Source: a bacterium
Lineage (GTDB): Bacteria > Hinthialibacterota > Hinthialibacteria > Hinthialibacterales > Hinthialibacteraceae
NCBI GenBank assembly: GCA_016125385.1
Contig: WGLV01000002.1
Location: forward strand, 124,001-188,000
Length of the DNA stretch: 64,000 nucleotides
Direction of reading: 5' to 3'
In this document: piece after piece, positions 24,620-26,197 of the stretch
How positions within the stretch are numbered: position 1 is the first letter of the stretch
Layout of the letters: the number at the start of each line of letters is the position of its first letter
Made by a program: the position numbers and the translations under genes
The notes under the pieces: model-generated
Seen by the model: the letters and a program-made list of their open reading frames with translations, nothing else
The model's database searches: none
What the model was told of the DNA's origin: nothing

Positions 24620-26197
24620 ATGGCGGACGTGTTACGCGCTACATACGACTTGACTTGTGACGCCACCGAAGTGGAGGGCTTCAGCAAGGATATTGCGTAC
24701 GAACAGACGGTTGAAGTTCCTGAATCGCTGGTTCCACCTGAAATTCGTGACCGGGTTGTGGGCAAAATACAGTCCATCACTCCGATATCCGAATCGCCTG
24801 CGGCGTTTAGAACTGTTATCGATTACCCGGCAAGCCATATCGGTGGACAATGGCCGCAACTGCTGAATCTGATTTATGGAAACATCTCTCTGAAAAAAAA
24901 CATCCGATTGACGGGGTTGGAGTTTCCCGATTCGTTTCTCAGTACCATTTATGGCCCTAATTACGGCATCGACGGCATTCGCAAAAGGTTGGGAGTCTAT
25001 GGCCGGCCGTTGCTGTCAACCGCGCTGAAGCCATACGGCTCCAAACCTGAAGTTTTCGCGGAAATGGCGAAAAAATTCGCCCTCGGCGGCGGTGACCTCA
25101 TCAAAGATGACCACAATCTGCATGAAGATTCGTTCGATGATTTCACTCGGCGGGCGCTGATGTGCCGCGACGCCGTGCTGGAAGCGGAAAAAACCACAGG
25201 ACGCCCCACGCTTTACTTTCCCAACGTGATGGCTCCGGTGGAAGAACTCGAACGCGCTTTGGCGTTTCTGCATCGCGAAGGCTTCTTTGGAATCCTGATT
25301 TCACCTTTCGCGGTGGGCCTCGATATGTTCCGCTATCTGGTAGAGAAATATCCAATCTGCTATATGGCTCACCCAAGCTTCACTGGCGCTCATTTCTTTG
25401 ACGACCGACATGGAATCGCTCACGGAGTCTTTTTAGGAACCATGTTCCGCATGTTGGGCGCCGATGTCTCGATTTTTCCGAACTACGGCGGGCGGTTTTC
25501 ATTCACGCGCCAGGACTGCCACGACATCTGTGACCGATTGCGTGAACCGCTGGGGGATCTCGCCAGCGCGTTTCCCGCGCCGGCTGGAGGAATGAAGTTC
25601 GATAATATTCCAACTATGAGCGCCGATTTCGGCGTTGAAACCGTCTATCTGATCGGCGGAGCGCTGATCGGATATTCCAGCGACCTGACCGAGAGCACGC
25701 AGGCGTTTATGGCGAAGGTCCGTGAGCACTTCAATGAACGTCTTGAAGACCCGGATGAGGGATTTGTTTCGGCGTGTGAATTGCCATCAGCCAAAGCCGC
25801 CGGTGTGGTGGTCAACCACCTGCCTTTCAATGAATTCCGATGGGAGGGTAGAGAGTCAGAGGCTTATAAAGACTCTAGTTCTGATCTTCCGTTTAAGAAT
25901 GTTTCTCGATGTGAGCTCATCGGAAAACACGGTGAAAACACCGCCTATGACCTTCGCTATTTCGAAATCGGCCCCGGCGGATTCAGCAGCCTTGAAAAGC
26001 ACAATCACACCCATACGGTGATCTGTGTGCGAGGTGAAGGCGTGTTAATGCTTGGTGATGAGCGAATTGAACTGAAGCATCTGGATACGGCGTACGTAAA
26101 GCCCATGCAGGTGCATCAGCTTAGAAATGAAAGCGATGAACCGTTCGGTTTTTTCTGTATCGTCGACCATGAACGCGACCAGCCGGTTAAGCCGTAA
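24620..26197 (+). CDS. RuBisCO-like protein (form IV-type) fused to a C-terminal cupin domain
   Basis: RuBisCO large-subunit landmarks STALKPYG, GGGDLIKDDHNLHEDSF, GIAHGVFLG, PAGGMKFDNIP, YLIGGALIGYS; C-terminal cupin HNHTHTVICVRGEGVLMLGDERIELKHLDTAYVKPMQVHQLRNES. Confidence 0.92.
   Translation: MADVLRATYDLTCDATEVEGFSKDIAYEQTVEVPESLVPPEIRDRVVGKIQSITPISESPAAFRTVIDYPASHIGGQWPQLLNLIYGNISLKKNIRLTGLEFPDSFLSTIYGPNYGIDGIRKRLGVYGRPLLSTALKPYGSKPEVFAEMAKKFALGGGDLIKDDHNLHEDSFDDFTRRALMCRDAVLEAEKTTGRPTLYFPNVMAPVEELERALAFLHREGFFGILISPFAVGLDMFRYLVEKYPICYMAHPSFTGAHFFDDRHGIAHGVFLGTMFRMLGADVSIFPNYGGRFSFTRQDCHDICDRLREPLGDLASAFPAPAGGMKFDNIPTMSADFGVETVYLIGGALIGYSSDLTESTQAFMAKVREHFNERLEDPDEGFVSACELPSAKAAGVVVNHLPFNEFRWEGRESEAYKDSSSDLPFKNVSRCELIGKHGENTAYDLRYFEIGPGGFSSLEKHNHTHTVICVRGEGVLMLGDERIELKHLDTAYVKPMQVHQLRNESDEPFGFFCIVDHERDQPVKP

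What the first reader, a model, noticed from the sequence alone, without database searches (positions are those of the whole stretch)
24620..26197. RuBisCO-like protein fused to a C-terminal cupin domain
Seen: a single ORF of about 525 aa has the RuBisCO large-chain landmarks in order (STALKPYG, GGGDLIKDDH, MAHPSFTG, GIAHGVFLG, PAGGMKFDNIP, YLIGGALIGYS). It then runs through an acidic/Ser linker (EGRESEAYKDSSSDLP) into a cupin with a His-rich metal motif (EKHNHTHTVICVRGEGV...KPMQVHQLRN). From family knowledge, and aligned by eye: the carbamylated Lys is kept in KDDH, but the third metal ligand Glu of KDDE is His, the KPK second Lys is Tyr, and the HxHSGTVVGK region reads SIFPNYGGR. So it cannot be a bona fide carboxylase and belongs to a form IV-type RLP lineage. 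Inference: a fused cupin could supply a second metal-dependent step (isomerase, epimerase or dioxygenase) on the same sugar-phosphate-like substrate, or act as a ligand sensor. I do not know of a characterised RLP-cupin fusion.
Basis: partly seen in the sequence, partly recalled or inferred. Interest (0 to 1): 0.82.

Follow-up and report, generated by a model that had tools for sequence, protein, structure and literature searches.

The report
Two-in-one methionine-salvage RuBisCO-like enzyme
This gene fuses two enzymes that are separate proteins in well-studied bacteria, a RuBisCO-like isomerase and a small cupin, into one protein that most likely turns a sulfur-containing waste sugar from SAM use into an isoprenoid building block while freeing its sulfur for methionine.

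Summary
The ORF is real: 24620-26197 (+), 525 aa, no stop. It joins a RuBisCO-like protein (RLP, residues 1-371) to a cupin (404-525). A relative in the same bacterial family and over 50 public genome contigs carry the same fusion, so it is not an artefact.

What the cupin does can be answered by homology. The RLP half groups with R. palustris RLPs of the DeepYkr type (PDB 3QFW), not with MtnW. The cupin half's best solved relatives are Rru_A2000 (3JZV) and orthologues. In R. rubrum and R. [quoted passage not shown] Other genomes carry the pair fused, adjacent or unlinked. This genome has the upstream enzymes (MtnP, MtnA) and O-acetylhomoserine sulfhydrylase, but no ARD or MtnC.

The Glu-to-His change in KDDE is a clade trait (His or Gln), not an oddity. 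The host has bacillithiol synthase BshC but no GshB over cut-off, so the thiol acceptor is probably bacillithiol (inferred).

Verdict: new variant of a known kind, a widespread fusion I found no paper describing. Activity of the fusion is untested.

The parts
24620..26197 (+). RLP-cupin fusion gene, 525 aa plus stop
24620..25732 (+). RLP domain (residues 1-371), predicted MTRu-1P 1,3-isomerase
25028..25030 (+). K137, Lys of the KP motif, invariant in all 86 aligned RLP and RuBisCO sequences
25103..25114 (+). KDDH (residues 162-165), site of the carbamylated Lys and metal ligands; fourth residue His or Gln throughout the clade
25481..25495 (+). NYGGR (residues 288-292), loop-6 region signature of the clade
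25733..25828 (+). Linker (residues 372-403), low-confidence in the model around 390-396
25769..25780 (+). SACE motif (residues 384-387) in the linker, found in many but not all fusions
25829..26194 (+). Cupin domain (residues 404-525), predicted MTXu-5P methylsulfurylase
26000..26014 (+). H461, H463, H465: invariant cupin His residues, likely metal ligands
26114..26116 (+). H499: fourth invariant cupin His
26156..26158 (+). C513: invariant cupin Cys, possible thiol in the transfer (inferred)

Best explanation
It is a bifunctional enzyme of the MTA-isoprenoid shunt. MTA is left over when SAM is used; MtnP and MtnA, encoded elsewhere in this genome, convert it to 5-methylthioribulose-1-phosphate (MTRu-1P). 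The RLP half, using a carbamylated Lys and a metal, enolises that sugar and moves its carbonyl (1,3-isomerisation) to give 1-methylthioxylulose-5-phosphate (MTXu-5P). The metal cupin half then transfers the methylthio group to a low-molecular-weight thiol and releases 1-deoxyxylulose-5-phosphate (DXP) for isoprenoid synthesis. The mixed disulfide gives methanethiol, which O-acetylhomoserine sulfhydrylase turns into methionine. Shown here: the fusion, the family of both halves, conserved active-site residues and the presence of the partner enzymes. Known from papers: the two activities in the separate R. rubrum and R. palustris proteins. Inferred: both activities in this fusion, any passing of the intermediate between sites, and bacillithiol rather than glutathione as the thiol.
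For: RLP half: best solved relative is 3QFW from R. palustris. All 80 RLPs of this kind in the tree, R. palustris included, form one clade away from MtnW (support 100, 100/100). KDD[H/Q] and GGR signatures are shared with the R. palustris RLPs and absent from MtnW and RuBisCO. Cupin half: 77-102 bits to the Rru_A2000 group against 31 bits to the next family; W408, Y416, K417, R430, RYF446-448, H461, H463, H465, H499, Q500, C513 and RD519-520 are shared with 3JZV, 3KGZ and 3IBM. Gene order: RLP directly followed by, or overlapping, this cupin in 16 loci and fused in 53; in 7 of 10 genomes with a lone RLP the cupin lies elsewhere. Two lone cupins sit in methionine operons, metX-cupin-metY in L006 and cupin-metY in L007. 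Own genome: MtnP, MtnA and O-acetylhomoserine sulfhydrylase over cut-off; ARD and MtnC none; MtnB only below cut-off. Activities of the separate proteins, in vivo and in vitro for R. palustris RLP1 and by deletion for the cupin: PMC5893883, PMC4958253.
Against: No biochemistry on any fusion was found. Identity of the RLP half to 3QFW is about one third (33%), moderate for naming a substrate. The R. rubrum RLP sequence itself was not retrieved, so the DeepYkr assignment rests on the R. palustris RLPs and on papers. MtnP and MtnA are not near the gene in any of the 80 loci. Dxs is present, so the shunt is not needed for isoprenoids. The genome is 95.8% complete, so absences are not absolute.
Confidence: 0.86

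Rival explanations
1. It is a fusion for the classical aerobic methionine salvage pathway: the RLP half is a DK-MTP-1P enolase like MtnW and the cupin half is an acireductone dioxygenase (ARD/MtnD is also a cupin).
For: MtnW models are the best-scoring NCBIfam families for the RLP half, ARD belongs to the cupin superfamily, and MtnP and MtnA feed this pathway too.
Against: MtnW scores are far below cut-off (209 of 409, 166 of 513.6 bits). The RLP lies outside the MtnW clade and lacks KDDE. No ARD match in the protein or in G000 and G001. No MtnC; MtnB only below cut-off. The cupin belongs to the Rru_A2000 group.
Confidence: 0.05
2. The RLP half acts on a different sugar phosphate, for example 5-deoxyribulose-1-P from 5'-deoxyadenosine (which would give DXP directly), and the cupin does a related but different thiol step.
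For: Sequence distance to characterised members is large. Some lone RLPs of this clade occur in genomes where no such cupin was found (L078, L080, L102).
Against: In the fusion the cupin is always present, and its residues match the methylsulfurylase group, which would be pointless for a substrate without a methylthio group. MtnP and MtnA are present.
Confidence: 0.06
3. The cupin is a non-catalytic ligand-sensing or structural domain that regulates the RLP.
For: AraC-binding and Cupin_2 profiles match the domain, and cupins can be sensors.
Against: All four His and the Cys are invariant in fusions, pairs, unlinked cupins and solved structures, and the deletion phenotype of the separate R. palustris cupin is catalytic (PMC5893883).
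Confidence: 0.03

Closest known systems
R. rubrum Rru_A1998 + Rru_A2000 (MTA-isoprenoid shunt; PMC4958253, and Erb et al. 2012 and Warlick et al. 2012 as cited there)
   Same: Same two protein families and the same predicted consecutive reactions; the cupin structure 3JZV is named Rru_A2000 and is among the three best solved matches.
   Different: Two separate proteins there, one protein here; published reaction uses glutathione.
R. palustris RLP1 + cupin (RPA2169, RPA2170; PMC5893883); related structures 3QFW and 3KGZ
   Same: RLP fold and KDDH/GGR signature; cupin His and Cys residues; genes with consecutive numbers there.
   Different: Separate genes. This host has BshC and no GshB over cut-off.
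MtnW, DK-MTP-1P enolase (2OEK, 2ZVI)
   Same: RLP fold; methionine salvage from the same group of intermediates.
   Different: Separate clade, KDDE, and a different branch that needs MtnB, MtnX and MtnD.
MtnBD of Tetrahymena (PMC3698126)
   Same: A methionine-salvage fusion protein covering several steps.
   Different: Different enzymes on the classical branch of the pathway.

Membership tests
DeepYkr-type RLP (MTRu-1P 1,3-isomerase) | Groups with R. palustris RLPs rather than MtnW | tested here: met
   one clade, full support
DeepYkr-type RLP (MTRu-1P 1,3-isomerase) | Active-site signature shared with R. palustris RLPs (KDDH or Q, GGR) | tested here: met
DeepYkr-type RLP (MTRu-1P 1,3-isomerase) | 1,3-isomerase activity | not testable with these tools
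   Needs an assay; reported for R. palustris RLP1 (PMC5893883)
MTXu-5P methylsulfurylase (Rru_A2000 cupin) | Best matches are Rru_A2000 and its orthologues, well above other cupins | tested here: met
MTXu-5P methylsulfurylase (Rru_A2000 cupin) | Conserved His and Cys residues | tested here: met
MTXu-5P methylsulfurylase (Rru_A2000 cupin) | Methylthio transfer giving DXP | not testable with these tools
   Needs an assay
MTA-isoprenoid shunt | MtnP and MtnA supply MTRu-1P | tested here: met
   both over cut-off
MTA-isoprenoid shunt | O-acetylhomoserine sulfhydrylase to recapture methanethiol | tested here: met
   over cut-off
MTA-isoprenoid shunt | Glutathione as thiol acceptor | tested here: inconclusive
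   GshB match only 67 bits, cut-off 299; BshC over cut-off; other glutathione routes not searched
MtnW DK-MTP-1P enolase | Over the family cut-off | tested here: not met
   209 of 409 and 166 of 513.6 bits
Bona fide RuBisCO | KDDE and loop-6 Lys | tested here: not met
Acireductone dioxygenase (ARD) | PF03079 match | tested here: not met
   Not among Pfam hits of the protein; no match in G000 or G001

The most novel reading that the evidence does not exclude
A single-chain MTRu-1P to DXP enzyme that passes the intermediate between its two sites and uses bacillithiol instead of glutathione, giving many uncultured phyla an oxygen-free methionine salvage route that feeds isoprenoid synthesis.
Probability: 0.35. 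Interest if true: 0.6.

Novelty: new variant of a known kind. Interest (0 to 1): 0.45.

Why it matters
It answers what a cupin is doing on a RuBisCO-like protein. The fusion supports, independently of the original genetics, that the RLP and the cupin work together, and it extends the MTA-isoprenoid shunt, which the papers I found describe in Proteobacteria and a few others, to Planctomycetota, Nitrospirota, Acidobacteriota, KSB1, Fibrobacterota and other groups. Databases often label these proteins ribulose-bisphosphate carboxylase large chain, which can mislead claims of carbon fixation in metagenomes. The bacillithiol prediction is directly testable.

Tried and rejected
Two key primary papers (Erb 2012, Warlick 2012) are not held; their content is taken from later open papers. 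A role for the SACE linker Cys as a resolving thiol was considered and dropped, because the motif is missing in many fusions. Substitution for Dxs was rejected: Dxs is present. A SAM-type riboswitch was sought in the window and in 11 fusion loci: none at gathering scores. Conserved neighbours: no MtnP or MtnA within about 6 kb in 80 loci and no widely recurrent partner gene (the one large cluster was represented by a frame antisense to the RLP gene itself). Assembly artefact or frameshift rejected. A single clean fusion clade was not found: unfused pairs and lone RLPs nest inside the fused set, so fission, loss or repeated fusion must be assumed.

Full report
Observation. The window encodes a 525-aa protein at 24620-26197 (+), open from a TTG at 24599, with an ATG at 24620 preceded by GAGGA. 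Pfam finds RuBisCO_large and Cupin_2, both over cut-off. The fusion is not an artefact: genome G001 of the same family carries it at 72% identity, and the protein search lists more than 100 full-length fusions.

What the RLP half is. NCBIfam's nearest models are MtnW and RuBisCO, all far below cut-off. The best solved relative is 3QFW, whose sequence is 100% identical to a Rhodopseudomonas palustris protein over the stretch searched. The AlphaFold2 model (mean pLDDT 86.3) matches 3QFW with TM-score 0.93 by target length and 32-33% identity. In a maximum-likelihood tree of 86 RLP and RuBisCO sequences, all fused, paired and lone RLPs of this kind and the R. palustris RLPs form one fully supported clade apart from MtnW and RuBisCO; a careful tree without the longest branches agrees. 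The Lys, Asp and Asp of KDD are invariant. The fourth residue is His or Gln in the clade and Glu in all six outgroup sequences; the loop-6 region reads GGR in the clade with one exception at the first Gly.

What the cupin half is. Its best solved relatives are 3IBM, 3JZV (named Rru_A2000) and 3KGZ at 77-102 bits; the next family scores 31 bits. Four His (461, 463, 465, 499) and C513 are invariant in 53 fusions, 16 paired cupins, 10 unlinked cupins and the three solved structures.

Link to a known pathway. PMC5893883 and PMC4958253 report that in R. rubrum and R. palustris a DeepYkr RLP isomerises 5-methylthioribulose-1-P to 1-methylthioxylulose-5-P, and that a cupin (Rru_A2000; RPA2170) then removes the methylthio group with glutathione, giving 1-deoxyxylulose-5-P. 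The same RLP and cupin families are fused here. In the 80 best genome-contig loci, 53 are fused, 16 have RLP and cupin adjacent or overlapping, 10 have a lone RLP and one is cut by its contig end. In 7 of the 10 lone-RLP genomes a cupin of this family lies elsewhere. Two lone cupins lie in methionine operons, metX-cupin-metY (L006) and cupin-metY (L007).

The host. G000 has MtnP, MtnA, O-acetylhomoserine sulfhydrylase and Dxs, no ARD, no MtnC, and only a below-cut-off MtnB-like match. GshB is below cut-off, while bacillithiol synthase BshC is over cut-off in both G000 and G001. The inference is that the thiol acceptor is bacillithiol; PMC6302742 had already suggested that the thiol would differ between organisms. 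The window also carries NrfA-type and prismane-type proteins, which would fit a part-anaerobic life in which an oxygen-free salvage route is useful (inference).

Rivals. The strongest rival, an MtnW-ARD fusion for the classical pathway, fails on sequence, tree, signature and the missing ARD family in both genomes. A different sugar-phosphate substrate cannot be excluded without an assay, and a purely sensory cupin is unlikely given its invariant His and Cys residues.

Evolution. Fused proteins are mixed on the tree with nested pairs and lone RLPs; the fused label needs at least six changes. The data cannot tell gain from loss.

Novelty. The parts are known and so is their partnership. I found no paper that describes the fusion, though most subscription papers are not held. 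I therefore call it a new variant of a known kind. Activity of the fusion, the thiol used and any channelling are untested.

Noticed in passing
window 32643-34049 (-) and 34620-36266 (-): Cytochrome c552 nitrite reductase-type protein and a prismane/hybrid cluster-type protein lie close together, suggesting nitrite handling under low oxygen.
   Followed up: partly
window 29640-31223 (+): A 527-aa phosphoglucose-isomerase-like protein far below every NCBIfam cut-off for glucose-6-phosphate isomerase (best 148 of 443 bits).
   Followed up: no
window 26313-28340 (+): CotH kinase protein with a Lamin Tail Domain directly downstream of the fusion gene; no evident functional link.
   Followed up: no
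window 25769-25780: Linker motif SACE with a Cys that is invariant in 20 aligned fusions but missing in many others and in unfused pairs.
   Followed up: partly
L006 146-3140 (-) and L007 167-1878 (-): Lone Rru_A2000-type cupins in metX-cupin-metY and cupin-metY operons, in genomes where the search with the fusion found no RLP match; where their substrate comes from is unclear.
   Followed up: partly
L078, L080, L102: Lone RLPs of this clade in genomes where no cupin of this family was found: a cupin-free use, or incomplete genomes.
   Followed up: partly
window 19514-21054 (+): CbiQ-type cobalt transport protein and an ECF-like ABC ATPase in overlapping open frames.
   Followed up: no
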